NCBI RefSeq assembly: GCF_003946405.1
Contig: NZ_RHOG01000009.1
Location: forward strand, 1-64,000
Length of the DNA stretch: 64,000 nucleotides
DNA from: Lacticaseibacillus yichunensis
Lineage (GTDB): Bacteria > Bacillota > Bacilli > Lactobacillales > Lactobacillaceae
Direction: 5' to 3'
A model generated the notes under the pieces. The model did not search any database, was not told the DNA's origin, and saw only the letters and a program-made list of their open reading frames with translations. Below, one piece after another: positions 2,874-31,750 of this stretch (within the stretch, counting starts at the first letter, position 1; the number at the start of each line of letters is the position of its first letter). The position numbers and the translations under genes are program-made.

Positions 2874-3542
2874 CGGGGCTGCCTCCTTCGTTTATTTTCT
2901 GAAAATCAATGATATTAAGGCTAGCACAGCGAGGCGGTTTTTGCAATGAAGGCGCCCGGCTACAGCTGAACAACGTCATAAGCGATCCTACGGCCGGGTG
3001 GGCGCCGACCAGGAATTGGCTGGAACGCTCCCAAGCAACTTTGAGCCCGCACAGGTCGCGGTCTCAAAGCTTGCTTTCGGTGTAAGCGGCACAGCCGCTA
3101 ACACCGACGAGGGGGCTGAGCCATTCCTGGCCGGCGCCCACCCTCACATCCAGCACTCGAGTCATAAATATGCTGACCCAAGCTTAATCAATTCAACAGC
3201 CCAACAAAGCAGAGCTGTCAACCCCAGCTTCCCCAAAGCGCAGCGTGTAGTCTTAACTAGTCCTCCTCTAACTGTGCCTTCCAGGCCATTCATTCTGTGG
3301 TTCTGCTTCCACCGCGTCTATCGAAGCCTTGGTCAGTATCTGGGGAGGATGCCATAAACAAACACCTAAAAAAACCGAAAATCGTAAAGTCCGTGCTCTT
3401 TGTTGAACAAGAGACATCACAGAATAGAACGCAAGCCCACCCACGGGGCCGACACATCGTTGCTCCTGAGCCAAGTCAAATTCCTTGCGTTTTTCCCTGA
3501 AGCAAGTACGCTTAAGATAACAAATCAAAGGAGTTGATCTGA
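2874..3542. other. 669-bp gap between divergent genes, holding family A repeat copy A1
   Basis: The gap separates the ABC-F gene from the ADP-ribosylglycohydrolase-like gene. It contains one family A structured repeat (2996-3150). The remaining 390 bp are AT-richer and show no convincing ORF. An AAAGGAG site precedes the ATG at 3543. I found no well-spaced promoter for that gene. Confidence 0.6.
2996..3150 (+). repeat. family A multi-branched structured repeat, copy A1
   Basis: An outer stem of about 25 bp closes the element: 2996-3021 pairs with 3118-3142, with GTGGGCGCC at one end and GGCGCCCAC at the other. Inside, AAGCAACTTTGAG pairs with CTCAAAGCTTGCTT, and TCGGTGT pairs with ACACCGA beneath GCGGC/GCCGC. 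Conserved single-stranded parts are GGAACGCTCCC and GACGAGGGGGCTGAGCC, and the copy ends CCCACCCTCACATC. The same architecture recurs at 10.7 and 31.6 kb with compensatory base changes. Confidence 0.75.
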
Positions 3543-4487
3543 ATGGCGATCATCGATTCACGACTCACGCATGGCCTGATCGGGTTTGCGATCGGCGACG
3601 CACTTGGATTGCCGGTCAAGGGGCAGTCCCTGGCGGCGCTTGCGGCGGATCCCGTGGCGACGATGCGGGGGTATGGCCACTTCGATCTGCCGGCCGGGTA
3701 TTATTCGGATGAGACCTCGCTCATGCGGGCCAGTCTGGCGTCGTTGAGCCGCGGCTTTGACCCGGCCGACCTGTTGGCGACGTATCAGCATTGGTATCAC
3801 GACCGCGAGTACGCACCTTATACCGGACCAGTTTTTGAAGTGTGGCCCAGTGTCCGCGCCGCTGTTGAAAATGGGGCGCCGCAGGTCAACACGGCGGCGG
3901 ATCCGGGTGGGCTGGTGCGCGTGCTGCCACTGGCGTATTTTCTCTATCAGGAAAATGGGCCGGATCTTTTCGGCAACGCGGACGCCATGCAAAAATTACA
4001 GGCGTTCTTGGCCGTGACCAGTCCGGACCCCGCCAACCTCATCGCCGCAAGTATCTATGCCCAGGCAGCGCTGTATCTGCTGAGCGACATGACGATCGCC
4101 GCTGCTTTGCCGCAAGCCTTGCAGCGGGCGCTGACCTATTTTGCCGATGTCCCCGAGGCGCTCGATTTTCAAGTGCTGACCCAACTTGATGCCCGGCGTG
4201 CGCAAACGATGGCCGAGGCGGCACCCACCCCGCGCAATGTGTTGGGCGTCGTCTGGTTTGCGCTGGGCAGCACCAGTGATTACCGCGAGGCGACGCTGAC
4301 TGCGGTCAATTTGGGCGGCACCACAGATGCGACGGGCGCGCTGACTGGCGGGCTCGCGGGGCTCGGCTATGGCTACACGAAGATTCCGCATCGCTGGTGC
4401 CTGACGCTGGTCAAATACAGTGAGATCGTCGATGACATTAATGAGGCCGAAGCCAGCGGGCATTTTCCGACTTACGGCGACGACTGA
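3543..4487 (+). CDS. ADP-ribosylglycohydrolase-family protein with altered metal-site motifs
   Basis: A 314-residue all-helical protein of the DraG/ARH family, whose members remove ADP-ribose from proteins or small molecules using two magnesium ions. The N-terminal GFAIGDALGLPV motif is typical. The usual SDDT/SDDS ligand motif appears as YSDETSLM near residue 57, and the C-terminal GGDTDT motif appears as GGTTDATGALTGG near 260. At least one aspartate ligand of the canonical site is therefore missing, and activity may be changed or lost. ATG 3543 follows AAAGGAG with good spacing. The gene stands alone. The physiological substrate is unknown. Confidence 0.75.
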   Translation: MAIIDSRLTHGLIGFAIGDALGLPVKGQSLAALAADPVATMRGYGHFDLPAGYYSDETSLMRASLASLSRGFDPADLLATYQHWYHDREYAPYTGPVFEVWPSVRAAVENGAPQVNTAADPGGLVRVLPLAYFLYQENGPDLFGNADAMQKLQAFLAVTSPDPANLIAASIYAQAALYLLSDMTIAAALPQALQRALTYFADVPEALDFQVLTQLDARRAQTMAEAAPTPRNVLGVVWFALGSTSDYREATLTAVNLGGTTDATGALTGGLAGLGYGYTKIPHRWCLTLVKYSEIVDDINEAEASGHFPTYGDD

Positions 4488-4811
4488 AGGCGGCGACCAC
4501 TGATCGCAGCAACGCGCAAAAACGGCAGGACACCGGCCTTCTCACGCGACAAAGGCTGACGCACGGGCCTTCTCACGCGAAAACGCCAGTCGCGGCCCCC
4601 GCGACAGCACCCGCCGGATCCCCGCGCACATCGCGGTCCGACCCCCGCAGGACTGCCGCCTGCCGCAGCCGCCTCATCGCACACGTGACTATATAATAGA
4701 AGAAATATCAGCACCCACTGTCTATTTTTCCCGTCATCCTTGCTGTGATGCTAGTCGCGGAGCCCTTGCTTGTGTTATGCTAGGGAAAATTAGATGCAAG
4801 AAGGTGTGACC
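4488..4811. other. 324-bp GC-rich gap before the signal peptidase gene
   Basis: The first 200 bp are very GC-rich and contain a short direct repeat, GGCCTTCTCACGCGA, twice (around 4537 and 4567). I see no gene. The last 80 bp are AT-richer and hold the signal peptidase promoter. Confidence 0.5.
4773..4781 (+). promoter_or_regulatory. extended -10 promoter of the signal peptidase gene
   Basis: TGTTATGCT is an extended -10 element with no good -35. It would place the transcript start near 4788, about 24 bases before the GTG start at 4812. Confidence 0.5.
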
Positions 4812-5459
4812 GTGGCGGATCGACCAACAGGGGATACACGCGCGACCAATTCGCACAAAAAAGCTTCAAAGATGAACGAAACAGTGAAATGGTTGCTCGA
4901 GATGGTCGTGATCATCTTGGTGGTGCTGGTGGGCACCAAGCTGCTCATGAATCACGTGGTCTCAAAAGATGTGGTGCAGGGCACCTCGATGCAGCCGACG
5001 CTGGAAAATGGCGACCGCCTGTACTCGTTGCGCAACAAGAGCATCCATCGCAATGATATCGTGGTCATCGATGCCCCGGATCAGCCGGGCCAGCTGTACA
5101 TCAAGCGCGTGATCGGGATGCCGGGCGACACGGTGGCGGTCCAGGACGACAAGCTGTACATCAACGGCAAGGAGACCAAGGAGCCCTACCTCAAGGCGAG
5201 CTTCATGAAACAGGAGATGAAGACCTATGCCGCGCAACAGGGCATCGATCTCAATTCGCTGAAGTTCACGTATGACTTTGACATCGCGACGCTGCCGAGC
5301 ACCAAGTCGAAAACGGTCCCCAAGGGCTCCTACTTCGTGATGGGCGATAATCGTCTGGTGTCGCATGACGGGCGCGATTTTGGCTTTATCAAAAAGAGTA
5401 AGGTCCAATCGGTCGTGGTCTGGCGCTACTGGCCGCTGAATAAAATGAAGATCTTCTGA
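4812..5459 (+). CDS. lepB: type I signal peptidase
   Basis: Membrane-bound serine protease that cleaves signal peptides from exported proteins. The 215-residue chain has a short basic N-terminus, one transmembrane segment at about residues 24-44 and an extracytoplasmic catalytic domain. The nucleophile serine is in GTSMQPT, the general-base lysine in YIKRVIGMPGD, and the late box is GSYFVMGDNRLVSHDGRDFG. The frame is open from an ATG at 4794, but the GTG at 4812 follows AGAAGGTG with proper spacing, while the upstream ATG has no ribosome site and would sit only a few bases from the inferred transcript start. The gene is monocistronic with a strong terminator. Confidence 0.93.
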   Translation: MADRPTGDTRATNSHKKASKMNETVKWLLEMVVIILVVLVGTKLLMNHVVSKDVVQGTSMQPTLENGDRLYSLRNKSIHRNDIVVIDAPDQPGQLYIKRVIGMPGDTVAVQDDKLYINGKETKEPYLKASFMKQEMKTYAAQQGIDLNSLKFTYDFDIATLPSTKSKTVPKGSYFVMGDNRLVSHDGRDFGFIKKSKVQSVVVWRYWPLNKMKIF

Positions 5460-5467
5460 TTGTTACC

Positions 5468-5503
5468 AAAGAGCTGAGGCATGCGAGTCTCGGCTCTTTT
5501 TTT
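5468..5503 (+). terminator. terminator of the signal peptidase gene
   Basis: AAAGAGCTGAG, a loop and CTCGGCTCT are followed by seven T residues, 8 bp after the stop codon. Confidence 0.9.
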
Positions 5504-5570
5504 GTACGTTGGCCGCCGCCACGTTTTTGTTTGCCCCCCTAACAATTTTGTCAGCTCGGCGCAAAATCTG

Positions 5571-5598
5571 TGGACATCCCTGTTGCCTCTGTCATACT
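5571..5598 (+). promoter_or_regulatory. promoter of the two-gene ABC exporter
   Basis: TGGACA (5571-5576), a 16-bp spacer and CATACT (5593-5598), with an upstream TG giving an extended -10. It lies 30 bp before a GAAGGAGG site. Confidence 0.55.
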
Positions 5599-5627
5599 TG
5601 AGGCATCTATGAAGGAGGCATCAGGGT

Positions 5628-6407
5628 ATGCAACCAGCCATCAAGTTGTCACATGTGCAAAAATCTTTCGGGGCCAAAACGGTCCTCAAAGATGTCAGTT
5701 TTGCGATCGATCCGGGCACCATTGTGGGGTACATTGGGCCAAACGGAGCCGGCAAAAGCACCACGGTCAAGATCATCTTGGGGCTGCTTCGCCAAGACGC
5801 CGGCACGATCGAGATCAACGGCCAGCCGCTGCGCGAGGACGACAACGACTACAAGCGCCACATCGGTTACGTCCCGGAAGCCGTCGATGTGTTCGATGCC
5901 CTGACCGCCCGGGAATACCTCACGCTGATCGGCCAGCTGTACGGCCTCGACGAAGCGGTCGCCGGGGAAAAAGCGGAACAGCTGGCCGCGATCGTCGGCC
6001 TCGCCCCGGCCTTTGACCGCCGCATCACCTCGTATTCCAAGGGCATGCGCCAGCTGGTGTTGATCATTGCCAGCCTGTTGCATGACCCCGACATCCTGTT
6101 TTGGGACGAGCCGCTTAACGGCCTGGACGCCAACACGGTGCTGGTGATCGAGGAGATTCTGCACGAGTTGAAGAATCGCGGGAAGACGATTTTCTATTCC
6201 AGTCACATCATGGACGTGGTTCAAAAGCTCTCCGACCGGATCATTTTGCTCAATGATGGCGAGGTGCAGGCGGACGGACCGTTCAAGGAGATCACCCGCG
6301 GCGCCGACACCAACTTGCAGGAGCTGTTCAACGAGCTGACCGGCTTTGCGGAACACGGGGAAAAGGCCAAGGCGTTCGTCGATATCGTGACAGGAGGCGA
6401 CCGCTGA
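5628..6407 (+). CDS. ABC transporter ATP-binding protein
   Basis: A 259-residue ABC ATPase that would power the permease encoded directly downstream. Walker A is GPNGAGKSTT near residue 39, the signature region is SYSKGMRQ, and Walker B is ILFWDEPLNGLD, followed by the H-loop in YSSHIMD. It belongs to the group in which one ATPase pairs with a large exporter-type membrane protein, such as EcsA-like and CcmA/BcrA-like ATPases. ATG 5628 has GAAGGAGG ten bases upstream. The TGA stop overlaps the ATG of the permease, so the two are translationally coupled. The substrate is not evident, and no peptide or resistance gene lies beside it. Confidence 0.88.
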   Translation: MQPAIKLSHVQKSFGAKTVLKDVSFAIDPGTIVGYIGPNGAGKSTTVKIILGLLRQDAGTIEINGQPLREDDNDYKRHIGYVPEAVDVFDALTAREYLTLIGQLYGLDEAVAGEKAEQLAAIVGLAPAFDRRITSYSKGMRQLVLIIASLLHDPDILFWDEPLNGLDANTVLVIEEILHELKNRGKTIFYSSHIMDVVQKLSDRIILLNDGEVQADGPFKEITRGADTNLQELFNELTGFAEHGEKAKAFVDIVTGGDR

Positions 6408-8116
6408 TGGCGGACATTGAGATGCCCAAAGCCTTGCAGTGGGTCCGCCTCCTTCGCCCATTGCTTGAAAAAAACGGAGTGGATTACCGCCAGTATTGCT
6501 TGGTCGTCCGCACCAAATATGAAATGGCCGCGCGCAGCCAAAACGGCATCGGCCTGACGATGCAGACTAACGGCCCAAAAAAGCCCAGCGCCCATCCCAT
6601 GCGCAACAGTTTTCTGGTCAACCTGCTGATCGGTGGCGTGATCGCCCTGCTGATGGCGCTGTATGCCCGGACCTCGCTGATGACCCAGCTGACCACCCTC
6701 TTTTCGACGCTGTTCATCATGTTTTTCCTGACAATGCTGACCAGCTACTCGAGCCTCATTCTCGATCCGCGCGACCGCCAGATCTTCACGGTGCGCGGGG
6801 TGTCCGGCCGCACCTTAAACCTCGCGCGTCTGTCGATCGTCGGAATGTTTTTGCTGCTGACGATTTTGTCGCTGGGCGGGCCTTCTTTGATTGTGATCGC
6901 GATGAGCCAGCAGAATATCCCGCTGGTGCTCGGCACGCTACTGGGCGCCTTGCTCTTGGCGCTATTTTGCTTCGTGCTCTCCCTCTTTTTATACTTGCTG
7001 GTCCTTCGCTTCTTTGACGGCGAGCGGCTGAAAAACATCCTGAACATCCTGCAGATCGTGATCGCCATCGGGTTTTACATCTCCGCCCAACTGCCGAATC
7101 TGCTCGGCGCCGATGTGTTGGCCAGGTTCAACTTCACCATCCCTAACGACGTCTTTTTCTGGTGGTACCTGCCGACTGTGCCCGTGTGGTTCGCCGGCCC
7201 CGGGCTGCTGACGGCGGGCGTGTTTGCGCTAAGCGCCTGGCTGTTGACCGCGCTGGCCGTCCTGGTGCCAGCCGTTCTGCTGGTGATCTACCTCAAGCAC
7301 GCGGACCGCTTCGAGCAATATTTGGAAAAGCTCGAGCAAAGCGACGCCACCTCCCGGAAAAATGGCTGGTGGTTCACCCTGTCGCGCCGCGTCTTGACCG
7401 CCAATTCCGAAGAGGCCACTTACTACACGCTGGGGTGGCGGATGCTGCAATATGAGCGCGAATACAAATTGCGCGTGTATCCGCAGCTCGCTTATGGCCT
7501 GATCATTCCCCTGATTATGGGCAGCGCGTTTTTGCGGAACATGTCTTGGGGCATGGCGAAAAATTTTGCGCCGTATTTGTCGGCGGGCCTGATCTTGGCC
7601 ATTCCGACGGCGTTGATGATGTTGCGGTACGCCTCGCAGCCCGAGGCGATGGGCATTTTCCGCTTCGTGCCGTTTGCCACGCAAGGCCTGCTGCTGCGCG
7701 GCATTGTGCTGGCGATGTTCGCCCGGCTCTTTTTGCCGCTTCTGCTCCTCTATCCGCTGGCGATGCTGGCGGTGGCCCCGGCGACCGCGCTGACGTCGGG
7801 GCTCCTCGTGCTCACCTTGTCGCTGGCGGTCACCTTCCTGTTTGGCCGCTTCATGGTTGGCAAGGTCCTGCCATTTTCCGCTGAATTCAGCCCGGCAAAA
7901 GGCATGCAAAATGGGACCATCGGCTGCGTGACCGTCGGCTTGGCGATGCTGTTGATCTTCGCTGTGATCATGGTCGGCGGCCTGGTCCACGCGTGGTGGC
8001 TCGACTTGATCGGCGCGGCCATCTTCGGGGCGATCGCCTGGCTGAGTTGGCGGAGTTATCCGCGCAGCATCATGTACGACCTGCACCTGCAGGAAACTGA
8101 TTCAGATCAAGACTGA
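6407..8116 (+). CDS. ABC transporter permease
   Basis: A 569-residue integral membrane protein with about 12 hydrophobic segments, starting near residue 66, after a hydrophilic N-terminal part of about 65 residues. It follows the ATPase with an ATGA overlap and its own AGGAGGCG site, so the two form one export or efflux complex. A cytoplasmic charged stretch near residues 295-345 separates two membrane halves. I do not recognise a family-specific signature, and the cargo is unknown. The operon ends at a strong bidirectional terminator. Confidence 0.8.
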   Translation: MADIEMPKALQWVRLLRPLLEKNGVDYRQYCLVVRTKYEMAARSQNGIGLTMQTNGPKKPSAHPMRNSFLVNLLIGGVIALLMALYARTSLMTQLTTLFSTLFIMFFLTMLTSYSSLILDPRDRQIFTVRGVSGRTLNLARLSIVGMFLLLTILSLGGPSLIVIAMSQQNIPLVLGTLLGALLLALFCFVLSLFLYLLVLRFFDGERLKNILNILQIVIAIGFYISAQLPNLLGADVLARFNFTIPNDVFFWWYLPTVPVWFAGPGLLTAGVFALSAWLLTALAVLVPAVLLVIYLKHADRFEQYLEKLEQSDATSRKNGWWFTLSRRVLTANSEEATYYTLGWRMLQYEREYKLRVYPQLAYGLIIPLIMGSAFLRNMSWGMAKNFAPYLSAGLILAIPTALMMLRYASQPEAMGIFRFVPFATQGLLLRGIVLAMFARLFLPLLLLYPLAMLAVAPATALTSGLLVLTLSLAVTFLFGRFMVGKVLPFSAEFSPAKGMQNGTIGCVTVGLAMLLIFAVIMVGGLVHAWWLDLIGAAIFGAIAWLSWRSYPRSIMYDLHLQETDSDQD

Positions 8117-8132
8117 CCACGTGCCTGGTATA

Positions 8133-8176
8133 TGCAAAAAAGGACTGCGGAAGTTTTTTCCCCAGTCCTTTTTTGC
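8133..8176. terminator. bidirectional terminator
   Basis: TGCAAAAAAGGACTG and CAGTCCTTTTTTGCA form a long inverted repeat between the convergent ABC permease and DUF975 genes, with A and T runs that serve both strands. Confidence 0.9.
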
Positions 8177-8205
8177 ATGCCGTGGCAGCGCGCCCACCCG
8201 GCGTT

Positions 8206-8949
8206 TTATTCTTGTGCGCGCGCAATGATGAAGTTGCGCAGATTGTCGTAGTACGCCGCCTTCACCAACTGCAGATACGGCTCGATCAACAGGTCGGCTA
8301 GATGCAGCGTCACATTTTCCAAAAGACGCCAGCCGATGATCGACAATTCCAGCAGCAAGAAGTCCGTCTTGAAGCCGCGCATCATGGCCCAGGAGCCGAC
8401 CAGCGCGCGCATCGACCCAAAATGCGGATCCTGCTCACGGCCGTCATAATACAGGTACTCGCCTTGCGCCAGGCCCAAGCTGAGCATCAGCCCCGGAATG
8501 ACGAAAAGCGAGGTGCCAAACGCCGTCAGCATCGTTGAGACGATGACCAGCAGCAACAACCCGAAAAAGTAGCGGCTATTAAAGGTACGCATCAAGGCTT
8601 GAAGTGGCGACACGCGGGTCAGCTTGCCGCGGGTCACATCCAGCGCGGTAAAGTTCAGGCCGGCGCCAAACCACAGCAACAATAGCGATTGTAGCGCCGT
8701 ACGCGCGGTCGTGTTCCCGCTGTGGCCGAGATAGTAGTCGATGAAGCCATCGGGGTCGCGCAACCAGTTGTCAAAGCCGTATGCCTGAAGCAACTGCAGG
8801 AAGACCAGCACCATGGCCACCGCGAAAAACACGTTGATCAGCCATGGCACGATATTTGCTTTGATCAGATCGCCGTACAGGCCCGGCTGGCGCAGCTGTT
8901 GCTTTGCCGTTTTTTTCAATTCTCGGCGCGTCTTATAGGCAGTTTCCAT
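8206..8949 (-). CDS. DUF975 family membrane protein
   Basis: A 247-residue membrane protein. The basic N-terminal start, KTRRELKKTAKQQLR, before the first membrane segment is the hallmark of DUF975 proteins, which are common in lactobacilli. About five or six hydrophobic segments follow, with a GEYLYYDGREQDP-type cytoplasmic loop near residue 165. ATG 8949 follows AAAAAGGAG. The function of the family is not established. The gene lies 21 bp downstream of the GT2 gene and is probably cotranscribed with it. Confidence 0.8.
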   Translation of the reverse strand: METAYKTRRELKKTAKQQLRQPGLYGDLIKANIVPWLINVFFAVAMVLVFLQLLQAYGFDNWLRDPDGFIDYYLGHSGNTTARTALQSLLLLWFGAGLNFTALDVTRGKLTRVSPLQALMRTFNSRYFFGLLLLVIVSTMLTAFGTSLFVIPGLMLSLGLAQGEYLYYDGREQDPHFGSMRALVGSWAMMRGFKTDFLLLELSIIGWRLLENVTLHLADLLIEPYLQLVKAAYYDNLRNFIIARAQE

Positions 8950-8970
8950 TCAGTGGTCTCCTTTTTGTGA

Positions 8971-9759
8971 TCACAGATCAGAGCCCATCTGTTTGATCAC
9001 ATCTTCTGCGGCACGTTCTCCTTCAGTATGGCGAACGCGGATCAGTTTTTGAATCAGCCAAAGGGCGTGGATCTCCTGCGGCAAAAGGCCGAGGGTACCA
9101 AGCGACTGGGTCACCGAATCCGCCCGCATGACATAATGGTAATGCGGCGTCCCGGTGTATGTAAAGCGGTGGCCCTCCAGCACGTACTGGACATTGAACA
9201 GCGCGTCTTCCATGATCGCGACATGCTCATTGAAAGACAAGTCATGCGCCGTGATCAGCGCGCGGCGATACATTTTATTCCAAGTGTACCCGCGCACCGT
9301 CCCCACCGGTGCCAGCAGCCCGCGCAACAACTGGCTTTGCGTCAGCGGGCGAGCCAGCCGATCCGCCGGTTGGTGACTGCGTTCGTTGGTATCGTCGAGA
9401 AAATAGGGCGCGATGGCCATATCGGCGCCGCGTTCCATTGCCGCAACCAACGTGGCCACATGGGCAGGCAGCGCCCAGTCGTCGCCATCAAAAAAGGTGA
9501 CGTATTTACCTCGAGCTTGGGTGAGACCAGCATTGCGCGCCGCCGACACCCCGCCATTTAGCGGGAGGTAGACCGGTTCGACGCGGGCATCGCGTGCGGC
9601 ATAGGCCGCGATCAGGTCGGTCGTGTCATCCGTCGACGCATCGTCGATCACCAGCACCTGCAGCGCGGGATACGTTTGATGCAGCACACTGTCGAGGCTG
9701 CGCTTGAGATACGGCCGAAGATTGAAGATCGGCATGATCACTGAGACTAATGGCGTCAA
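8971..9759 (-). CDS. GT2-family glycosyltransferase
   Basis: A 262-residue inverting GT-A-fold glycosyltransferase. SVIMPIFNLRPYL at the N-terminus, VIDDASTDDT near residue 38 and the metal-binding motif FFDGDDW near residue 90 define family GT2. WNKMYRRALI and EDALFNVQYV further on are typical of enzymes building surface polysaccharides or teichoic-acid decorations. There is no C-terminal membrane segment, so it is probably cytosolic or peripheral. The only start available is TTG at 9759, behind an AAGGAAGGGATGG site with slightly long spacing. Acceptor and sugar donor cannot be predicted. A second small GT2 lies at 60.2 kb. Confidence 0.85.
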   Translation of the reverse strand: MTPLVSVIMPIFNLRPYLKRSLDSVLHQTYPALQVLVIDDASTDDTTDLIAAYAARDARVEPVYLPLNGGVSAARNAGLTQARGKYVTFFDGDDWALPAHVATLVAAMERGADMAIAPYFLDDTNERSHQPADRLARPLTQSQLLRGLLAPVGTVRGYTWNKMYRRALITAHDLSFNEHVAIMEDALFNVQYVLEGHRFTYTGTPHYHYVMRADSVTQSLGTLGLLPQEIHALWLIQKLIRVRHTEGERAAEDVIKQMGSDL

Positions 9760-9846
9760 ACCACTGTCACCATCCCTTCCTTATCCGTAGTATACCCGAC
9801 TTTTCTGTCAGGAAAGTGACAGCGCCAAACAAAACGGCATCTGCGC

Positions 9847-10670: not shown

Positions 10671-10976
10671 TCAACCTGCAAAACGCGGGGGTTGGGCGAA
10701 ATGCCCGGTTGAGCGCCGGCCGAAAATTGGCTGGCGACCGAAGTAGAGCGGACAAGCAACTTTGAGCCTGCAAAAACCGCGGTCTCAAAGCTTGCTTTCG
10801 GCGTAAGCGGCTTTGCCGCTAACGCCGACGAGGGGGCTTGCTCTGGGCGTTAGGCATTTATGCCTTACGCCCAGACATGTGAAGCGAGCCATTTCTGCCC
10901 TCCGCCCACCCTCATATCTAGCTTTGATCTGATAACCGCTTAGACCGTAAAACCAAAACCTTTCCGAAAGTTTCAG
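10649..10976. repeat. perfect 16-bp inverted repeat spaced 328 bp end to end
   Basis: CTGAAACTTTCGGAAA at 10649-10664 and its exact reverse complement at 10961-10976 bracket family A copy A2. They could be two operators for the DeoR protein, allowing looping, or the termini of a small mobile segment. Confidence 0.7.
10708..10918 (+). repeat. family A multi-branched structured repeat, copy A2
   Basis: The inner helices of family A are intact: AAGCAACTTTGAG with CTCAAAGCTTGCTT, and TCGGCGT with ACGCCGA over GCGGC/GCCGC. This copy is longer because an extra perfect-looking hairpin, CTGGGCGTTAGGCA with TGCCTTACGCCCAG (10843-10874), sits between the last helix and the closing stem. The outer stem is weaker than in A1. 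It ends CCCACCCTCATATC. Confidence 0.75.
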
Positions 10977-24402: not shown

Positions 24403-24423
24403 ACAGTAACAGTTACGATTAAT
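24403..24423. promoter_or_regulatory. Zur/AdcR-like operator upstream of the metal transporter
   Basis: GTAACAGTTAC (24406-24416) is a perfect palindrome around one central base. With its flanks, the minus strand reads TTAATCGTAACTGTTACTG, close to the Firmicutes Zur box (TCGTAATNATTACGA) and related to the AdcR box. It lies 18 bp before the ATPase start. Confidence 0.6.
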
Positions 24424-24550
24424 AATTCTATCTTACCCGAGGTTTGCTGAAAATGCCAGTGCCCCACCCGTTTTTTTTCAGCGCGGCGAGGCGGCCCACC
24501 GGCGCAAAGCCCGAAAAAAAAGCCGCGCACCGAGGCACGCAGCGTTTCAT

Positions 24551-24895
24551 TTAGTTCTGCTTCAGCTGACTGAGATCGTTGGCCTCACTGAAGTCCAGGT
24601 AGATCGTCTTTGGCTTGTCCTTGGCGATCAGAATGTAGCCATGGCCGAGAAACGGCTTGTCGCCACTGTAAGTCAGCGGAAATTCCTGGGCCGGCGCCAA
24701 GTCGCCCTGAACGATCATCGCGTACATCTCGTCCTCATCATGATCATCGGAGAAGAACACCGCAACCGGCGCCGTGACCAGCTGATCGGCTTTGCTCATG
24801 AGGTGAAGGACGTCAAACAACTGATCGGTCACTTCTTTGGGAAAAACGGCAGCCACTGCCTCGCTCACATGCGAGCGCTTTGAAGACTCATACAT
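24551..24895 (-). CDS. DUF960-like small protein
   Basis: A 114-residue soluble protein. The start MYESSKRSHVSEAVAAV and the ending with KTIYLDFSEAND resemble DUF960 proteins of staphylococci and lactobacilli, whose function is unknown. There is no signal peptide or membrane segment, and the middle is acidic (FFSDDHDEDEMYAMIV). Two adjacent ATG codons exist (24898 and 24895). The second has better spacing to the GCAGGGA site. It lies 54 bp downstream of the FGGY kinase and may be cotranscribed or served by its own promoter. Confidence 0.6.
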   Translation of the reverse strand: MYESSKRSHVSEAVAAVFPKEVTDQLFDVLHLMSKADQLVTAPVAVFFSDDHDEDEMYAMIVQGDLAPAQEFPLTYSGDKPFLGHGYILIAKDKPKTIYLDFSEANDLSQLKQN

Positions 24896-24948
24896 CATGT
24901 CCCTGCTTTCTGAAAATTGATAGGCTCAGCATACCATATCCGCGCCTA

Positions 24949-26451
24949 CTACAACAGCGGCTGACGCTGAATCGCCGCCAGGGCCGCCGCGGTCGCCTCG
25001 TTTTGCCGGCTGGCCTGATGCCACAGATGAAATAATTGGCGATACGCGGCATGGCGCGCCGAATCCGGCTGAACCGCGGCACCCGTGATCGGCGGGACCA
25101 CGTCTTCGGCTGCCACGACCCAATTCAAGGCCTGCATGCCAATCGCCGCCGCACCCAGGGCCGCCGCCTGCCCGCCTGCTTGAACCGCAAGTGGCAGGCC
25201 AAAGATGTCGGCGACGATCTGCCGCCACAGCGGGCTTTGGGTAAAGCCGCCGGTGGCTGTGATCAGATCCATTTCGCCGATCAATGGCCACATCAATTCG
25301 GCGACATCCAGCAGCGCAAACCCGATGCCTTCCATCACGGCGCGGGCCATATCCGCCTGTGTGTGTTGCCGCGCAAGGCCCAAGAAGGCGCCGCGCGCTT
25401 CGGCCGTCCACAACGGCGCCCGGGCCCCGGCCAGATAAGGTAAAAATAGTAGCCCATTGGCCCCAACTGGACGAGTTCCGGCGGCTTCGGTCAACGCTTC
25501 GACGCTGGGTGCCCCGACCAGGTCACGCAGCCACACCAAGGCATTGGCACCATTATTGAGCGGGCCGCCCAGCACCCATTGATCCGGTCCCAGATAATAA
25601 GTAAAAAGTCGGCCGCCGAGATCCTGCACTGACTTTTCCGTCATCACGCGCACCGCACCGGACGTTCCGACTGAAAGTGCGAGGCGCCCGGCTGTCGCGG
25701 CCCCCGCCCCGAGCGTACTCAAACAGCCGTCACTCGCGCCCGCAAACAACGGCAGTCCCGCCGGCAAGCCAGTCTCCTCAGCCACGTTCGCCGCCAGCCG
25801 TCCCACTTCTGCGGTGGGCTCGACCAGCTGTGGCAACTGGGCGCGCGAAATGCCCGCCAGCGCCACCAGATCATCCGCCCAGTCCATCGTGTGCAGGTCA
25901 AATAGCGCCGTCGCATTGGCCAGCGAGCGGTCGATCACATAGTCGCCGCCCAACGCCAATAGCACATAGGACTTGATGCCGCACACGCGAACGGCCTGCG
26001 TCACCAGCGCCGGTTGCGTCTGCCGAAGCCACACCAATTTGCTAAGGGGCGCCATCGGATGCAACGGCACCCCGGTCCGGGCGAAGATCGTCGCCGCATC
26101 CGGCCGGGCCTTGAGCGTTTCCGTTGCCTCGGCGGGCCGATTGTCCGCCCAGGTCATCAGCGGGGCCAATGGGTGGCCCGCCTGGTCAAGAAGCAAGAGA
26201 CTATGCATCGCTGCGGAAAAACTGAGCCCGCTGATCCGGGCTGGGGCAATTTTCCCCGACATATCGCGCAGGCCGGCCACGACCGCCGCAACGATCGCAT
26301 CCGCGTCCTGTTCGGCTTTGCCTGTGGCATCTTCTACCATTGGGTAACCGTGTTCCGTTTCAGCAAAAAGCGTTCCATCGGCGCCAAATGCGGCCACCTT
26401 CGTGCTGGTCGTGCCGATATCCACGCCTAAGACCACCTGCGGCTCAAGCAT
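24949..26451 (-). CDS. FGGY-family carbohydrate kinase, probable gluconokinase
   Basis: A 500-residue sugar kinase. The N-terminal phosphate loop GVDIGTTSTKVAAF, the YPMVEDATGKAEQDADAI strand usual in gluconate kinases, FAGASDGCLSTLGAG near residue 240, and TATGGFTQSPLWRQIVADI near 395 define the FGGY fold. Gluconate is the best guess; xylulose or another polyol cannot be excluded. ATG 26451 has GGAGG upstream and overlaps the pullulanase stop by 8 bp. The pairing with pullulanase and a degenerate aldo-keto reductase in one transcript is unusual. No gluconate permease or 6-phosphogluconate dehydrogenase lies nearby. Confidence 0.83.
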   Translation of the reverse strand: MLEPQVVLGVDIGTTSTKVAAFGADGTLFAETEHGYPMVEDATGKAEQDADAIVAAVVAGLRDMSGKIAPARISGLSFSAAMHSLLLLDQAGHPLAPLMTWADNRPAEATETLKARPDAATIFARTGVPLHPMAPLSKLVWLRQTQPALVTQAVRVCGIKSYVLLALGGDYVIDRSLANATALFDLHTMDWADDLVALAGISRAQLPQLVEPTAEVGRLAANVAEETGLPAGLPLFAGASDGCLSTLGAGAATAGRLALSVGTSGAVRVMTEKSVQDLGGRLFTYYLGPDQWVLGGPLNNGANALVWLRDLVGAPSVEALTEAAGTRPVGANGLLFLPYLAGARAPLWTAEARGAFLGLARQHTQADMARAVMEGIGFALLDVAELMWPLIGEMDLITATGGFTQSPLWRQIVADIFGLPLAVQAGGQAAALGAAAIGMQALNWVVAAEDVVPPITGAAVQPDSARHAAYRQLFHLWHQASRQNEATAAALAAIQRQPLL

Positions 26452-28339
26452 GACGTGCCTCCGCCACCGCGACCAGAGCGCTGAGGGGCGCGACGGTCAG
26501 GGTGGTCGTTGACTGAGGCTGGGGCGCGTTGATCACCGTCGTATCATCGACCAGGACCGAATACTCGCCGGCGGGAACGGTCAGTTGTTGCGGCTGGTCG
26601 CTGGCGTTGACGGCGATGATCATGGTCTCGTTGCCACTCGTCGTTTGGTAGGCGACAAGCGACGCCGCGGCCACCAATGGCGCCACATTTTCCAATAAGG
26701 CGTTGGCATCGGGCTGGCGCAGTGCCGGGTGGGCGCGCCGCAACTCAATCAGCGCATGGACATAAGCGACGGTGGCGGGGTATTGCAGCTGGCGGTCCCA
26801 GTCGATCGCATTGACCGCGTCGCCGGCGCGATAAGAGTTGTCGTCGCCGTTCTTGGTGCGCATGAAGGCCTGGCCGAGCTGCAAAAATGGCACGCCCTGC
26901 GCAAGGAGCACGATGCTGATGGCCAACAGCGCCCGCCGCACCCGGGTCGCATCCGGCTCATCCGGTGCAACCGCGGTCAGTTTATCGTAAAGGGTCAAAT
27001 TGTCGTGGGCTTCCACATACTGGATGACCTGGTCGGGGCCAAGATACTGGCCTTTCAACGCAGGCACCGCCACCCGCCCGGTCATCTGTGGCGCAAGGGT
27101 CGCCCCATTGCCAGCGCCGCTGACAAAGCCAGGGTTGCTTGCGATAAACACATCCCCCTTGGCCAAGTCGCGCAAGTCATCATTGAAAAACGCGATGTGC
27201 GGCAATTGACTGGCGTTGGCCTGAATCGCCTTTTGCGCAGCCGGCAGCGGCGTGGCCATGGCCCAGCCCTCGCCGAGCACAATGATGCTGGGGTCGATCT
27301 CGTCTAGCGCCGCGCGCACCGCCTGCATGGTCGCCACGTCCAGGATACCCATCAGATCGAAGCGAAACCCGTCGAGCTGGTAGTCTTTTGCCCAATCGCG
27401 CACGCTGTCGACGATGTATTTGCGGGCCATCACGCGCTCTGAGGCAAAATCGTTTCCGGTCCCGGTGCCATCGGAAAGGCTGCCGTCTGCGTCGTGGCGG
27501 AAAAAGTAACCAGGTTCGACTTTCCCCAGCGCGTGGGTCGCCGCATCAAAGACGTGGTTGTACACGACGTCCATGATCACGCGCAACCCGTTGTCGTGAA
27601 GCGTCTGAATCATTGTCTTGAGTTCCTTGATGCGGGTCGCCGGAGTCGTGGCATCCGTCGCATAACTGCCTTCCGGAACGCTGTGATTCAGCGGATCATA
27701 GCCCCAATTTTGCTGGGGTACGTCCGGCTTGGTCTCGTCGACGGTGGCAAAATCATAAATCGGCATCAACTGCACATGCGTCGCGCCGCTTGTCTTCAAA
27801 TAGGCGAGACCACTGACGGCGCCACGCGGGGTATGGGTGTTCGCTTCTGTCAGGCCGAGGTACTGCCCGCGGTGCTGAATCCCACTATTTTCAGCGATGG
27901 AAAAATCGCGGATGTCCGCCTCCACGATCACGGCATCCACTGGACTGGAAAAAGCCGGTAGCCGCTCGCCCCAGTTGGCCGGCACCGTGTCTTCGGGCGC
28001 TAGCACCACCGAGCGCTCGCCGTTGACGATCGCCGCCTTAGCATACGGGTCAAATAGGTCGTCGCGCGTTTCGTCGGCATGCACCACGGAAAATGTGTAG
28101 ACCGTGCCGCGCATATCGCCGACAATATCGACCGTCCACACGCCTTGATCCCCGCGCATCATGGATATCGTCTCTTCCAGCACACTGTCCGGCGTCGCGT
28201 CGGCATAGCGCTTCAGGGTCACGGCGCGGGCAGTCGGTGCCCACAGCCGAAAACGGGTGAAGGTCTTGCGGTACGTTGGCCCCAGCGGCCCATAGTAGGC
28301 ATATTGGGCGTCGATCTGCTCTGGTGTCAATTCAGTCAT
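26444..28339 (-). CDS. pulA: type I pullulanase
   Basis: A 631-residue GH13 debranching enzyme hydrolysing alpha-1,6 bonds of pullulan, glycogen or starch. There is no signal peptide, so it is intracellular. An N-terminal CBM48-like beta domain (FRLWAPTARAVTLKRY) precedes the barrel. The type I signature appears as QNWGYDPLNHSVPEGS, and the catalytic Asp, Glu and Asp lie in DGFRFDLMGI, IIVLGEGWA and YVEAHDNLTLYD. The frame is open 29 codons upstream, but ATG 28339 overlaps the previous stop as ATGACTGA and has GAGG nine bases away. It is flanked by overlapping genes on both sides. It probably mobilises stored or imported alpha-glucans. Confidence 0.92.
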   Translation of the reverse strand: MTELTPEQIDAQYAYYGPLGPTYRKTFTRFRLWAPTARAVTLKRYADATPDSVLEETISMMRGDQGVWTVDIVGDMRGTVYTFSVVHADETRDDLFDPYAKAAIVNGERSVVLAPEDTVPANWGERLPAFSSPVDAVIVEADIRDFSIAENSGIQHRGQYLGLTEANTHTPRGAVSGLAYLKTSGATHVQLMPIYDFATVDETKPDVPQQNWGYDPLNHSVPEGSYATDATTPATRIKELKTMIQTLHDNGLRVIMDVVYNHVFDAATHALGKVEPGYFFRHDADGSLSDGTGTGNDFASERVMARKYIVDSVRDWAKDYQLDGFRFDLMGILDVATMQAVRAALDEIDPSIIVLGEGWAMATPLPAAQKAIQANASQLPHIAFFNDDLRDLAKGDVFIASNPGFVSGAGNGATLAPQMTGRVAVPALKGQYLGPDQVIQYVEAHDNLTLYDKLTAVAPDEPDATRVRRALLAISIVLLAQGVPFLQLGQAFMRTKNGDDNSYRAGDAVNAIDWDRQLQYPATVAYVHALIELRRAHPALRQPDANALLENVAPLVAAASLVAYQTTSGNETMIIAVNASDQPQQLTVPAGEYSVLVDDTTVINAPQPQSTTTLTVAPLSALVAVAEARHA

Positions 28340-29009
28340 GGTGGTTTGCCTCATTTTCCTTGCGGTGCGTCGCGGCGCGTTCGGCGGCCGGAATCTGGTA
28401 GCGGCTAGGCTTGAAGATCCGGCCATCCAAGGCGTCGAGCACCTGCATGTCTTGAAAACTCAATTCGAAATCAAATATTGCGGTGGCCTGCGCCGGGGTA
28501 AGCCACTGGCTATCCACGACCGGCAGGAGCCCGCGCTCCAAAGCCCAGCGAAGCGCGAGTTGCTCAGGCAACTTCTGGAACCGCGCCGCCATTTTGCGCA
28601 GCGGCTTGAGCTGGTTCAGCTGCCCGTTGAAAAATAGGTCGGTCACCAAGGTCACTTGGCCGGCGTCGCGATCGTGCGCGCGCCCGGCTGCATCCTGGTG
28701 TAGCAGGTCGAGCTGGCGCCACACAACAGGCGCGGCGGCCGATGCGGGCGTGTTCGGTGCGGTCGGCGCTGGAATGGTCAGCGTTGGGGTCAGCGTCGCA
28801 ACTTGGGTCACCGCTTCGCCCAGCACAGTGCGAGTCGCGGTGGGTGCGGCGGGCACCAGGTCATCTGGTCCTGTGATCACAAAATGGGTGAAGCCTGCCG
28901 TCTGTGCTTGTCTCAGCGTTTCATCATCTGTGGCACGAAACGCCATGATGGGAATCTGCGTCCCGTTTTTCAGTTGGTACGTATCTGTCGGTCCGGTCAA
29001 ATGGGCCAC
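28332..29009 (-). CDS. degenerate aldo-keto reductase-like protein
   Basis: A 225-residue protein recognisable as an aldo-keto reductase at its two ends only: YQLKNGTQIPIMAFRATDD at the start, and QLALRWALERGLLPVVDS plus DMQVLDALDG near the end. The middle is shortened by roughly 60 residues and is Pro/Thr/Ala-rich. The catalytic Tyr motif (DxAxxY), the Lys strand and the substrate His are not visible, so it is unlikely to be an active reductase. The reading frame is intact. GTG 29009 has AAGGAA nine bases upstream; the GTG at 29018 abuts it. It is first in the operon with pullulanase, overlapping it by 8 bp. Confidence 0.65.
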   Translation of the reverse strand: MAHLTGPTDTYQLKNGTQIPIMAFRATDDETLRQAQTAGFTHFVITGPDDLVPAAPTATRTVLGEAVTQVATLTPTLTIPAPTAPNTPASAAAPVVWRQLDLLHQDAAGRAHDRDAGQVTLVTDLFFNGQLNQLKPLRKMAARFQKLPEQLALRWALERGLLPVVDSQWLTPAQATAIFDFELSFQDMQVLDALDGRIFKPSRYQIPAAERAATHRKENEANHHD

Positions 29010-29032
29010 TGGAACCACTTCCTTTGGGGTCT

Positions 29033-29041
29033 ATTTTAGCA
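29033..29041 (-). promoter_or_regulatory. extended -10 promoter of the pullulanase operon
   Basis: On the minus strand TGCTAAAAT lies just after the racD terminator, giving a leader of only about 17 bases before the GTG at 29009. The -35 is weak. Confidence 0.5.
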
Positions 29042-29070
29042 TACACCGCGGGGCTCACGAGACGGGCAAC

Positions 29071-29105
29071 AAAAAACACGCGACCCAATGAAGCAGTCGC
29101 GTGTC
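29071..29105 (-). terminator. terminator of the murE-racD operon
   Basis: On the minus strand ACACGCGAC, a loop and GTCGCGTGT are followed by TTTTTG. Confidence 0.88.
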
Positions 29106-29168
29106 TGAATCTGATTTACTTGGGTAACCCCCCGCCATCCCGGCCGAAACCAGTCAGCGACGAAAGCG

Positions 29169-29918
29169 CTACTTCATCAATTCTGCCAACATCTTATCCC
29201 CGGCATCCTTGCTGGTGCGAAAGGCGCGGCCGAGTGCCAGTGTTTCATCGGCGATGATGCTTTGGGCGTCCACCACGTGATACGGGTGATCCGGCGCCTT
29301 TTCCTGAGCGAAGGAGAGCTCGGTGCAGCCTAGCACGATCACGTTGACGCCGAATTGGTCGTGCATCGTCTTCAAAATCTGATGATACAGCGGCGCGTTG
29401 ACTTCGCCCTTGGCCTTGACGTAATTGTAGATCAGGTCCGTGACCATCGCCTGCAGGGCTTCATCGCCCAATTCGACGGCGCGGCCGGCTTCCTGAAGTT
29501 CATGCGCATAGATGCCATCGGCGATGGTGCCTTGCGTTGCGATCAGGCCAATTTTCTGCTCATCGGGATACTGCTTGTACAAGGTCCGCACGGCTTGGCG
29601 CGGCATGTGCAGCAGGGGCACGGTCGTCGCGGCCTGAAGCTCATCGTAAAAATAATGCGCGGTGTTACAGACCATCACCATGAAATCGGGCTTTAAAAGA
29701 CTCTGCTGCTGAATGTCCGACAACAGGTCCGGGTAAAAGCTCGGCTGGCTGTGATCGAGGATGTAGGTGGTGCGATCCGGCACCGTGGCGTGGTTGACCA
29801 AGATGTAATCCATGTAATCCTGATCCTTGGTCGCGTGGGTCCGCTCGGTGAGCAGGCGCAGATAGCTATTGGTGGCTGGGGTCCCCATACCGCCGATCAC
29901 GGTGAAAAATCGCTTCAT
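29169..29918 (-). CDS. racD: aspartate/glutamate racemase family protein, probable aspartate racemase
   Basis: A 249-residue cofactor-independent racemase. Both catalytic cysteines are present: VMVCNTAHYFYDEL near residue 84 and VIVLGCTELSFAQ near 197. The opening TVIGGMGTPAT is family-typical. The gene starts on the base after the murE stop codon. In lactobacilli with an L-Lys-D-Asp/D-Asn crosslink, aspartate racemase supplies D-Asp for the bridge; the tight linkage to an L-lysine-type murE supports that role here. Glutamate racemase is the main alternative but is usually encoded with other genes. Confidence 0.85.
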   Translation of the reverse strand: MKRFFTVIGGMGTPATNSYLRLLTERTHATKDQDYMDYILVNHATVPDRTTYILDHSQPSFYPDLLSDIQQQSLLKPDFMVMVCNTAHYFYDELQAATTVPLLHMPRQAVRTLYKQYPDEQKIGLIATQGTIADGIYAHELQEAGRAVELGDEALQAMVTDLIYNYVKAKGEVNAPLYHQILKTMHDQFGVNVIVLGCTELSFAQEKAPDHPYHVVDAQSIIADETLALGRAFRTSKDAGDKMLAELMK

Positions 29919-31475
29919 CTACTCGCCTTCTTTCAGCGTGTCTGCGACCTGCCCGACCACGACGAGATCCATCGGCCATGGGGTATCGACGCCGCGCACT
30001 TTTTGATACGGGTCCGCCCCTTTAGCCGCGACCACGACGACATCCTCTGGCCCACTGGCTTCGATGGCCTCGCGAATCGCTTTGGCCCGGTCAAGTTCGA
30101 TGTGGACCGTGACTTTGTCATGATCGATTCCGGCATCGATCTCGCTGGCAATTTTCGCCGGATCCTCATAGCCTGGATCATCGGTGGTCAAATACGCCTC
30201 GGTGGCATATTCACTGAGCACTTTTGAAAAATCGGCGCGACGGGAGACCCCTTTGTCGCCAGGCGCTCCGATGACCACGCGAATGGCCGGGTCGTGGTAC
30301 TCCGCCTTGAGAAAATGCAGCAAGGCCTGCACACTCGCATAGTTATGCGCGTAATCGACATAGGTGACCCCGTGGCCCGGGATCTCCTGGTGCTCCATGC
30401 GGCCGGGAATGGTGACGTCGGCAATACCAGGCACGGCACTGCGGTTATCGACACCAGCCAGTCCGGCGCCGATGATCGCGGCTGTGGCGTTGCTTTCGTT
30501 GAAGTCGCCAATGAGACTCAGATGATACTGGCCGCCGACATTCAGGGCCGCGGCTTTGTCGGAGGCCGGCACCAGGGTGAACTGACTGCGGGTCGTCGAC
30601 AAGGTCTGGCTCTCGAAGCGAAAATCGATATCAAGATCATCGCGTTTTGGCGTAAAGCCGGCCGACGCAAACAGATAGATACTGTCCGGATAGGTCGTCG
30701 TCATCGCCGCGGCGTAGACCTCATCGAAATGTTCAGTCTCCGCGTTGATCACGACTTTGCGCGAGTTGACCAGCAGCTGCATCTTGTTGTGCAGATAATT
30801 GGCGAAGGTCGGGTGCTCGTTGGGACCAATGTGATCCGGCGTGATGTTGAGGAAAAAGCCAACGTCATACGTCAGACCAAACACGCGGTTGCGCAGATAC
30901 GCCTGGCTGGAGACCTCCATCACCAGGTGTGTCATGCCGTTGTCGACCGCTTGGCGCATGTCGTGGAACAAATCCATGCTTTCCGGCGTGGTCAGATCCG
31001 ACTTGAACCGCTGATCCGGATTCGGGCCGATGATCCGGTCGATCGTGGAAAACAGGGCGACGCGCTTGGGATGGGCCTGTTCCAAAATGCCGCGTGTGAA
31101 ATAAGCCGAGGTCGTTTTACCCTTGGTGCCGGTATACGCAATGACGAACAGGTCGTCCTGCGGAAAATCATAAAAGGCCGCACTCAAGATTGCCATTGCC
31201 TTGGTGATATTGACGACGATCAGGGCGTTCATGCCATTGCCTTCCACGTATGGCTTTTCAGCGACATAGGTGATGGCCCCGTTGTCTTTGGCCATCGAGA
31301 GGTAGATCGGCCGAAACTTCGCGCCTTTGCAGAAGAACAGGCTCGGGCCGGAGACTTTGCGTGAGTCATACGCGATGCCGGTCATTTCGGTGTTGATGTC
31401 GTTTTGGACTGCACTGCTTTTCAGCAGGTGATGTTCTTTGAGTAAAAGAATGCACGCGTTCAAAGAGATTGCCAT
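29919..31475 (-). CDS. murE: MurE, UDP-MurNAc-tripeptide synthetase (L-lysine type)
   Basis: A 518-residue Mur ligase that adds the third amino acid to UDP-MurNAc-L-Ala-D-Glu in the cytoplasm. The ATP loop is AYTGTKGKTTSAYF near residue 113. The carbamylated-lysine region, VISTFDR-like here as FSTIDRIIGPNPDQRF, and TTPESMDLF follow. The substrate-selecting motif is LTTDDPGYEDP near 420: the DNPR of diaminopimelate ligases is replaced by DDPG, which points to L-lysine. ATG 31475 has AAGGAG upstream. It is operonic with racD with no gap, so the third residue and the D-Asp bridge are made from one transcript. Confidence 0.93.
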   Translation of the reverse strand: MAISLNACILLLKEHHLLKSSAVQNDINTEMTGIAYDSRKVSGPSLFFCKGAKFRPIYLSMAKDNGAITYVAEKPYVEGNGMNALIVVNITKAMAILSAAFYDFPQDDLFVIAYTGTKGKTTSAYFTRGILEQAHPKRVALFSTIDRIIGPNPDQRFKSDLTTPESMDLFHDMRQAVDNGMTHLVMEVSSQAYLRNRVFGLTYDVGFFLNITPDHIGPNEHPTFANYLHNKMQLLVNSRKVVINAETEHFDEVYAAAMTTTYPDSIYLFASAGFTPKRDDLDIDFRFESQTLSTTRSQFTLVPASDKAAALNVGGQYHLSLIGDFNESNATAAIIGAGLAGVDNRSAVPGIADVTIPGRMEHQEIPGHGVTYVDYAHNYASVQALLHFLKAEYHDPAIRVVIGAPGDKGVSRRADFSKVLSEYATEAYLTTDDPGYEDPAKIASEIDAGIDHDKVTVHIELDRAKAIREAIEASGPEDVVVVAAKGADPYQKVRGVDTPWPMDLVVVGQVADTLKEGE

Positions 31476-31521
31476 ATGAAGGCTCCTTATCTACGTAATT
31501 GAGTTTCAAACTACTGCGTCG

Positions 31522-31530
31522 ATTATACCA
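31522..31530 (-). promoter_or_regulatory. extended -10 promoter of murE-racD
   Basis: Minus strand TGGTATAAT, about 45 bp before the ATG. The -35 region is weak. Confidence 0.6.
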
Positions 31531-31594
31531 TAGCAGGCTGGGCGAAAATTCTTTGGCTCGGGCTTTGGCGTGTCGTTGGTTTGAATAAAACACC

Positions 31595-31750
31595 CGGGTG
31601 GTCTCCAGCCAGAAACTGGCTGGAACGCTCCCAAGTGACTTTAAGCCCGCGAAGTGCGCGGTCTTAAAGCTCACTTTCGGCGTAAGCGGCTTTGCCGCTA
31701 ACGCCGACGAGGGGGCTGAGCCGTTTCTGGCCGAAGCCCACCCTCACATC
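31595..31750 (+). repeat. family A multi-branched structured repeat, copy A3
   Basis: The outer stem GCCAGAAACTGGCT pairs with AGCCGTTTCTGGC. The inner helices are AAGTGACTTTAAG with CTTAAAGCTCACTT, and TCGGCGT with ACGCCGA over GCGGC/GCCGC. Relative to A1, the changes in the first inner helix (CA/TG to TG/CA, GAG/CTC to AAG/CTT) keep every pair. Confidence 0.75.

What the first reader, a model, noticed from the sequence alone, without database searches (positions are those of the whole stretch)
2996..31750. Family A: a multi-branched intergenic element conserved by compensatory base changes
Copies at 2996-3150, 10708-10918 and 31595-31750 share unpaired words (GGAACGCTCCC in A1 and A3, GACGAGGGGGCT in all) and the same three-helix design, while the helices themselves vary in step. 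The first inner helix is AAGCAACTTTGAG/CTCAAAGCTTGCTT in A1 and AAGTGACTTTAAG/CTTAAAGCTCACTT in A3. The second changes T-A to C-G (TCGGTGT/ACACCGA to TCGGCGT/ACGCCGA). The outer stem changes AGGAAT/ATTCCT to AGAAAC/GTTTCT. This is the signature of selection on a folded RNA or single-stranded DNA, not on sequence. All three are in the same strand orientation and lie in gaps that contain gene 5' ends. I do not recognise it as a named RNA or repeat.
Basis: partly seen in the sequence, partly recalled or inferred. Interest (0 to 1): 0.72.

Follow-up and report, generated by a model that had tools for sequence, protein, structure and literature searches.

The report
Folded DNA repeat family in lactobacilli
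The three look-alike stretches belong to a family of small repeats scattered dozens of times through the genomes of many lactobacilli; their folded shape is preserved while the letters change, more like folded DNA than like an RNA, and we found no name for the family.

Summary
A1, A2 and A3 are three of about 41 BLAST-found places in the window's own draft genome, a Lacticaseibacillus close to L. mingshuiensis. The fold occurs in 21 of 30 genomes of the genus and in Levilactobacillus and Schleiferilactobacillus, and on four plasmid records. A tree-aware test finds 19 of 40 drawn pairs covarying (E<0.05); the only two other significant column pairs extend the outer stem. Rfam has no match.

The fold is maintained, but its pairing does not look like an RNA's. 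Counted on pairs predicted from both strands, 30 copies give 13 G.T and 18 A.C; T-box RNAs of the genus give 26 and 12. The contrast is consistent but modest. The unit is modular: a 47-nt hairpin module (P5) and an alternative junction segment come and go at orthologous loci.

Best reading: a non-autonomous small interspersed repeat, in style like pneumococcal BOX elements, whose three-way-junction hairpin probably acts as folded DNA bound by an unidentified factor. One copy rides inside an ISLre2-family insertion sequence. No mobilising enzyme, target duplication or clean empty site was found, and an RNA is not excluded.

The parts
2996..3150 (+). Copy A1, type A junction, no P5 module
   Evidence: absent together with flanking DNA (2957-3471, 515 bp) from L. 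mingshuiensis, which has 29 nt there
2996..3021 (+). A1 outer stem P1, 5' arm
   Evidence: fold; P1 covaries across genera
3119..3143 (+). A1 outer stem P1, 3' arm
3022..3026 (+). A1 conserved internal loop GGAAC (partner TG at 3117-3118)
   Evidence: each of these seven positions conserved in 106-117 of 119 copies
3027..3032 (+). A1 stem P2, 5' arm GCTCCC
   Evidence: becomes GCAGTG/CACTGC or GCTGTG/CACAGC in congeners; 98.9% of cells paired, 5 of 6 pairs two-sided
3111..3116 (+). A1 stem P2, 3' arm GGGGGC
   Evidence: as for the 5' arm
3033..3076 (+). A1 hairpin P3 with C3046.T3062 mismatch and bulged C3070
   Evidence: mismatch in 72 of 72 parsed copies; C in 117 and T in 117 of 119
3077..3107 (+). 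A1 hairpin P4 with A3084.A3100 mismatch
   Evidence: mismatch in 67 of 72 parsed copies; 6 of its 7 lower pairs significant
10708..10918 (+). Copy A2, type B junction segment, with P5 module
   Evidence: the orthologous copy in L. mingshuiensis is type A without P5
10839..10885 (+). A2 optional 47-nt module carrying hairpin P5 with a T.T mismatch
   Evidence: clean presence or absence at orthologous loci; the 12 matches of its core in the own genome (up to 2 mismatches) all lie inside copies of the element, by comparing places
31595..31750 (+). Copy A3, type A junction, no P5 module
   Evidence: orthologous copy in L. mingshuiensis

Best explanation
A Lactobacillaceae family of small, non-autonomous interspersed repeats. 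Each full copy is about 155-220 bp and can fold, as one DNA strand, into a three-way junction: outer stem P1, junction stem P2, hairpins P3 and P4, and an optional hairpin P5. Shown here: the fold is maintained by paired changes across genera, with fixed mismatches and fixed unpaired words; pairing is almost purely Watson-Crick with no clear strand preference; modules differ between copies at the same locus; copies occur on chromosomes and plasmids, alone, in convergent pairs, in tandem, or inside an ISLre2-family IS. Inferred: the folded single-stranded or cruciform DNA is recognised by a protein acting in trans, as the ends of some transposing or recombining elements are, and this is how copies once spread. 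Since then many copies have been inherited in place, reshuffled by recombination between copies, and lost by deletion.
For: Copy number and spread. Fold. DNA-like pairing: in 72 parsed copies of the own clade P3+P4 give G.T 21 and A.C 21, P1 (43 copies with both arms parsed) 12 and 25. 119 copies give 42 and 70 on the model structure; without one drawn pair that most copies do not form it is 42 and 64, of which 27 A.C are in a single pair. Strand-neutral control: on pairs predicted from both strands the element gives 13 and 18 (40 pairs), T-box 26 and 12 (23 pairs). Wobble share of single predicted folds: 2.9% on both strands for the element, 15.2% and 7.7% for T-box. Arms vary through several pair types while mismatches stay, which argues against a sequence-read dsDNA operator. 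P2, whose arms lie about 75 nt or more apart, has 98.9% of cells paired, which argues against local hairpin-templated correction as sole cause. Modules. Passenger in an IS.
Against: No mobilising enzyme: Y1 transposases (PF01797) occur in 13 of 30 genomes without relation to the element (9 of 21 with it, 4 of 9 without), ISLre2 transposases (PF06782) in 6 of 30 and in neither G000 nor G021. No clean empty site or target duplication: at four G000 places without a copy in L. mingshuiensis the missing stretch is longer than the element, and one keeps the element's 5' end, so it is a deletion. On the structure that RNAalifold predicts from the + strand alone the element gives 45 G.T to 18 A.C. P2 leans to G.T (18 against 3). 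Some unpaired words are strand-specific, which an RNA would show too. The fixed orientation near gene starts in the window's clade fits regulation as well.
Confidence: 0.5

Rival explanations
1. A multi-copy structured RNA (small RNA or leader) transcribed from one strand; the fold acts in RNA.
For: Strong covariation with conserved loops and mismatches; G.T 45 to A.C 18 on the + strand RNAalifold structure; P2 leans to G.T; fixed orientation near gene starts in the window's clade.
Against: Strand-neutral count 13 to 18, against 26 to 12 for T-box; wobble equally rare in folds of both strands. No common gene orientation in other genera. No Rfam match.
Confidence: 0.25
2. The arms stay complementary by mutation, not selection: hairpin-templated correction (template switching; recalled mechanism) keeps rewriting one arm from the other.
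For: Nearly strict and strand-symmetric complementarity.
Against: C.T and A.A mismatches persist (C and T in 117 of 119 each), which correction would erase; P2 with distant arms is very well paired.
Confidence: 0.15
3. An ordinary MITE of a DDE transposase: P1 is its terminal inverted repeat and the inner hairpins are subterminal repeats bound as double-stranded DNA.
For: Many copies and long terminal complementarity; in G042 many copies are flanked by sequences resembling the ends of the ISLre2-family IS (partly by eye).
Against: Hairpin arms drift through several pair types, so they are hardly read as sequence; PF06782 is absent from G000 and G021; no target duplication seen.
Confidence: 0.25
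4. A cis-regulatory DNA element placed upstream of genes, perhaps extruding as a cruciform near promoters.
For: In G000 35 of 41 and in G021 33 of 40 places have the 5'-side gene pointing away, median 116 and 124 bp from its start.
Against: No such bias in other genera (33 '+' to 27 '-' in Levilactobacillus/Limosilactobacillus, 6 to 8 in Schleiferilactobacillus); Pfam names for the window's neighbours show no common function; modules differ at the same locus.
Confidence: 0.1

Closest known systems
BOX elements of Streptococcus pneumoniae (PMC3049150; passages seen)
   Same: Small interspersed repeats, modular with a variable internal module (boxB), tightly folded with the ends paired to each other; the paper reports slow present-day insertion.
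   Different: No sequence comparison was run. The present family spans several genera and has a three-way junction with fixed mismatches. The paper mentions similarity of BOX ends to ISSpn2; no resident IS with matching ends was found in the window's clade.
ERIC, bcr1, Correia/NEMIS repeats (recalled)
   Same: Intergenic palindromic small repeats with unknown or borrowed mobilisation.
   Different: Recalled only; not compared by any search.
IS200/IS605 hairpin ends and REP/BIME repeats (recalled)
   Same: Single-stranded DNA hairpins with conserved irregularities recognised by a protein; a model for how this could work.
   Different: Y1 transposase presence does not follow the element; the fold is much larger.
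ISLre2-family IS annotated as ISLca4 (NZ_CP033886; relative in NZ_CP151093)
   Same: Carries one copy of the element between one end and its transposase gene.
   Different: Six other PF06782 loci of the genus gave no match, some of them truncated; a related IS in G007 is about 127 nt shorter there, so the element looks like a passenger.
T-box leader (RF00230)
   Same: Structured, many copies per genome, same genomes.
   Different: Unrelated; used as the RNA control.

Membership tests
MITE | Small and multi-copy | tested here: met
   41 places, of which full copies are about 155-220 bp
MITE | No coding capacity | tested here: inconclusive
   not scanned systematically; the 47-nt module that comes and goes would break any frame
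MITE | Terminal inverted repeats | tested here: met
   P1 arms
MITE | Ends shared with a resident IS | tested here: inconclusive
   PF06782 absent from G000 and G021; IS-like ends seen by eye in G042, which has no PF06782 match either
MITE | Target site duplication at an empty site | tested here: inconclusive
   four G000 places lacking a copy in L. mingshuiensis are not clean
IS200/IS605-derived element | Y1 transposase in the same genome | tested here: not met
   12 of 21 genomes with the element have no Y1_Tnp match
BOX element | Modular interspersed repeat with variable internal module | tested here: met
   P5 present or absent at orthologous loci
BOX element | Sequence homology to boxA/boxB/boxC | not tested
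   no BOX sequence was fetched
Known Rfam RNA family | Score above a family's gathering cut-off | tested here: not met
   0 matches in the window; best sub-threshold E 1.1 (A1) and 4.2 (L118)
Structured RNA in general | Covariation | tested here: met
Structured RNA in general | G.U tolerated on the transcribed strand more than A.C | tested here: inconclusive
   not so and the strand-neutral count; so on the + strand RNAalifold structure (45 to 18) and in P2
Structured RNA in general | Transcription | not testable with these tools
   no RNA-seq available

The most novel reading that the evidence does not exclude
The family is the substrate of an undescribed single-stranded-DNA recombination or transposition system of Lactobacillaceae: a large folded DNA 'gene' whose hairpin modules, each a roughly 7-bp helix, a fixed mismatch and a second helix, are recognised by shape, and which can gain, lose and nest modules and ride inside insertion sequences.
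Probability: 0.2. Interest if true: 0.8.

Novelty: new variant of a known kind. Interest (0 to 1): 0.6.

Why it matters
Covariation is usually read as proof of functional RNA. Here a high-copy element found across several genera shows clear covariation with pairing that looks like DNA, so it is a test case for telling folded DNA from folded RNA in genome scans (G.T against A.C, counted without favouring a strand, with an RNA control from the same genus). It is also a repeat family, unlisted in Rfam, in food and probiotic lactobacilli, useful for typing and for finding what moves small interspersed repeats in Bacillota.

Tried and rejected
Y1 transposase as mobiliser: no co-occurrence (against 50). 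ISLre2 transposase as general mobiliser: rare and absent from G000 and G021. Clean empty sites in L. mingshuiensis: four places were compared; L012 is a deletion that keeps the element's 5' end, A1, L013 and L017 lack 515, 295 and 377 bp against 29, 8 and 21 nt. Empty sites among plasmids: the only record covering at least 80% of each query was the query's own; the other matches listed were to neighbouring IS genes, and only 25 of 362 and 25 of 334 records were listed. Cargo between convergent pairs: middles not homologous in five G000/G021 pairs nor, by eye, in seven L. namurensis pairs. Phage carriage: no match in 50,697 phage records for one query. tRNA yardstick for wobble: too few, replaced by T-box. 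Literature: six searches; none of the 14-25 papers listed by each described this family, judged by titles and abstract starts; most subscription papers are not held. PMC2267715 was searched for a few terms only, PMC3049150 in passages.

Limits of the counts: one search parsed 72 of 81 copies (9 dropped, named there) and P1 in 43 of those. Searches used 30 of the 123 hits, chosen by me from this and other genera, and the best T-box of each of 30 genomes. One search used 55 of the 123 hits, thinning L. namurensis. One search used 119 distinct rows and the 131 of 220 columns with at most half gaps, on an alignment fitted to the model; it is my own script in the manner of R-scape, with 60 null alignments, and assumes a tree although copies recombine. 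On checking, I withdrew the statement that two pairs were misdrawn (only one is), and I added the strand-neutral control; because that contrast is smaller than the one first written (132 to 31), I lowered the best explanation from 0.55 to 0.5 and raised the RNA rival from 0.2 to 0.25.
Full report
Observation. The three copies are present as described. A1 folds as RNA at -105.7 kcal/mol (z -10.2) and as DNA at -62.1 (z -9.8); the reverse strand folds about as well (z -9.3). The design is P1 outer stem, GGAAC/TG internal loop, P2, P3, P4. A2 carries another junction segment and an extra hairpin P5.

Copy number and organism. The own genome (G000, 2.56 Mb draft, window GC 57%) has 54 BLAST matches to A1 that reduce to 41 places and 47 model matches. 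The congener G021 has 40 places in the stretches fetched and 48 model matches. G021 is L. mingshuiensis 117-1, inferred because five contig lengths equal those of records NZ_BOLS01000001, 2, 4, 7 and 9.

Spread. A covariance model R1 from 25 copies finds the element in 21 of 30 genomes of the genus at E<=0.01, two of these only weakly (G020, G003), with up to 53 matches per genome. In a draw of 246 genomes of the order 7 match, all in the same family and in 4 of 64 genera; that search used stricter filters. R1 matches all 53 that bear names of Lacticaseibacillus, Levilactobacillus, Schleiferilactobacillus or Limosilactobacillus and none of the 27 others. Four plasmid records match a casei-type query, no phage record does.

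The fold is maintained. MAFFT alignment A2 of 25 copies, not fitted to a structure: 96.7% of cells pair, 29 of 40 pairs change on both sides, covariation 0.463 against 0.159 shuffled and 0.054-0.114 slid. Model-fitted alignment A3 of 119 distinct copies: 93.9%, 39 of 40, 0.538 against 0.152. A tree-aware null leaves 19 of 40 pairs significant at E<0.05; only two other column pairs pass, and they are the next two base pairs of P1. Unpaired words are nearly fixed while helices drift: GGAAC, TG, the C.T mismatch of P3 and the A.A mismatch of P4. In 26 of 55 diverse copies the word CTCCG stands in both flanks that form P1, on the same strand, against 0.4 expected from shuffled letters.

RNA or DNA. 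An RNA tolerates G.U but not A.C on its own strand. In the own clade P3 and P4 give 21 G.T and 21 A.C in 72 parsed copies; P1 gives 12 and 25 in 43. In A3 the counts are 42 and 70. One drawn pair (columns 31-101) is not formed by most copies; without it they are 42 and 64, and 27 of the A.C lie in one further pair (119-181), spread over several species. By helix, G.T against A.C: P1 5 and 12, P2 18 and 3, P3 11 and 15, P4 8 and 34. T-box leaders from 30 genomes of the genus were the control, at similar divergence (mean identity 0.63 against 0.61 for 30 copies of the element). On structures predicted from the + strand alone, which favours G.U, T-box gives 132 and 31 and the element 45 and 18. 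On pairs predicted from both strands, which favours neither, T-box gives 26 and 12 in 23 pairs and the element 13 and 18 in 40 pairs. The element keeps 40 of 42 pairs when predicted from the other strand, T-box 23 of 44. The share of G.U in single predicted folds is 15.2% on the real strand and 7.7% on the other for T-box, 2.9% on both for the element. On balance the helices behave as DNA, but the + strand structure and P2 speak for RNA.

Modules. At about 24 loci G000 and G021 hold a copy at the same place; matched left flanks are 92-100% identical, right flanks 71-99%. Some pairs are almost identical except for a clean 47-nt module (L008/L094 166 of 167, L019/L100 175 of 177, L020/L077 164 of 167). 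Others, such as A2, differ in both arms of P3 and P4 at once (136 of 168). The P5 core occurs only inside elements (12 of 12 in G000). The alternative junction segment recurs in the distant G042 (read by eye). Recombination between copies would explain most of this; four copies with P3 arms of two types look like recombinants.

Context. In G000 35 of 41 and in G021 33 of 40 places have the 5'-side gene pointing away (p 5e-6 and 4e-5; orthologous places are not independent), while the 3' side is unbiased. The bias is absent in the loci from other genera. In L. namurensis many copies stand in convergent pairs; seven aligned pairs are 64-82 nt apart with unrelated middles, others are further apart.

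Mobility. One lineage of ISLre2-family IS (annotated ISLca4; PF06782) carries a copy between one end and its transposase gene in plasmids of L. brevis and L. plantarum and in G015 and G016. In G042 I read, by eye, similar ends around many copies. Neither PF06782 (6 of 30) nor Y1 transposases (13 of 30) track the element. At four places where G021 lacks a G000 copy, the missing stretch begins within about 40 nt of the element's 5' end and runs some 125-320 bp past its 3' end; one is certainly a deletion, the others are not decided.

Conclusion. A new family of folded small interspersed repeats. Folded DNA is the better-supported carrier, an RNA is not excluded, and the moving enzyme is unknown. 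Closest in style are BOX elements (passages of PMC3049150). I score interest 0.6: the repeat kind is known, its pairing behaviour and reach are not.

Noticed in passing
L271 2917-4647 and L272 2916-4651: An ISLre2-family IS (annotated ISLca4 in L271) carries a complete copy of the element between one end and its transposase gene; the same IS is in G015 and G016 (L306, L305).
   Followed up: partly
L313-L324 (G042): Many copies share about 60 nt upstream and a longer stretch downstream whose outer ends resemble the ISLre2-family ends, so in this species the core may sit inside a larger MITE. Read by eye.
   Followed up: partly
L042 1480-1797 and L111 1260-1966 (G009): Tandem direct copies of the element spaced 181 or 168 bp, with one inverted copy beside those in L111.
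   Followed up: no
L131 around 1580-1650: The loop of P4 seems to hold a second P4-like hairpin: a module nested in a module. Read by eye.
   Followed up: no
L165, L197, L208, L214, L230, L182 (L. namurensis): Two element subtypes stand in convergent pairs with a gap of 64-82 nt but unrelated sequence.
   Followed up: partly
window 2957-3471; L012, L013, L017: At all four places compared where G021 lacks a G000 copy, the missing stretch starts near the element's 5' end and extends well past its 3' end. Deletion starting at the hairpin, or a larger inserted unit, could explain it; unresolved.
   Followed up: partly
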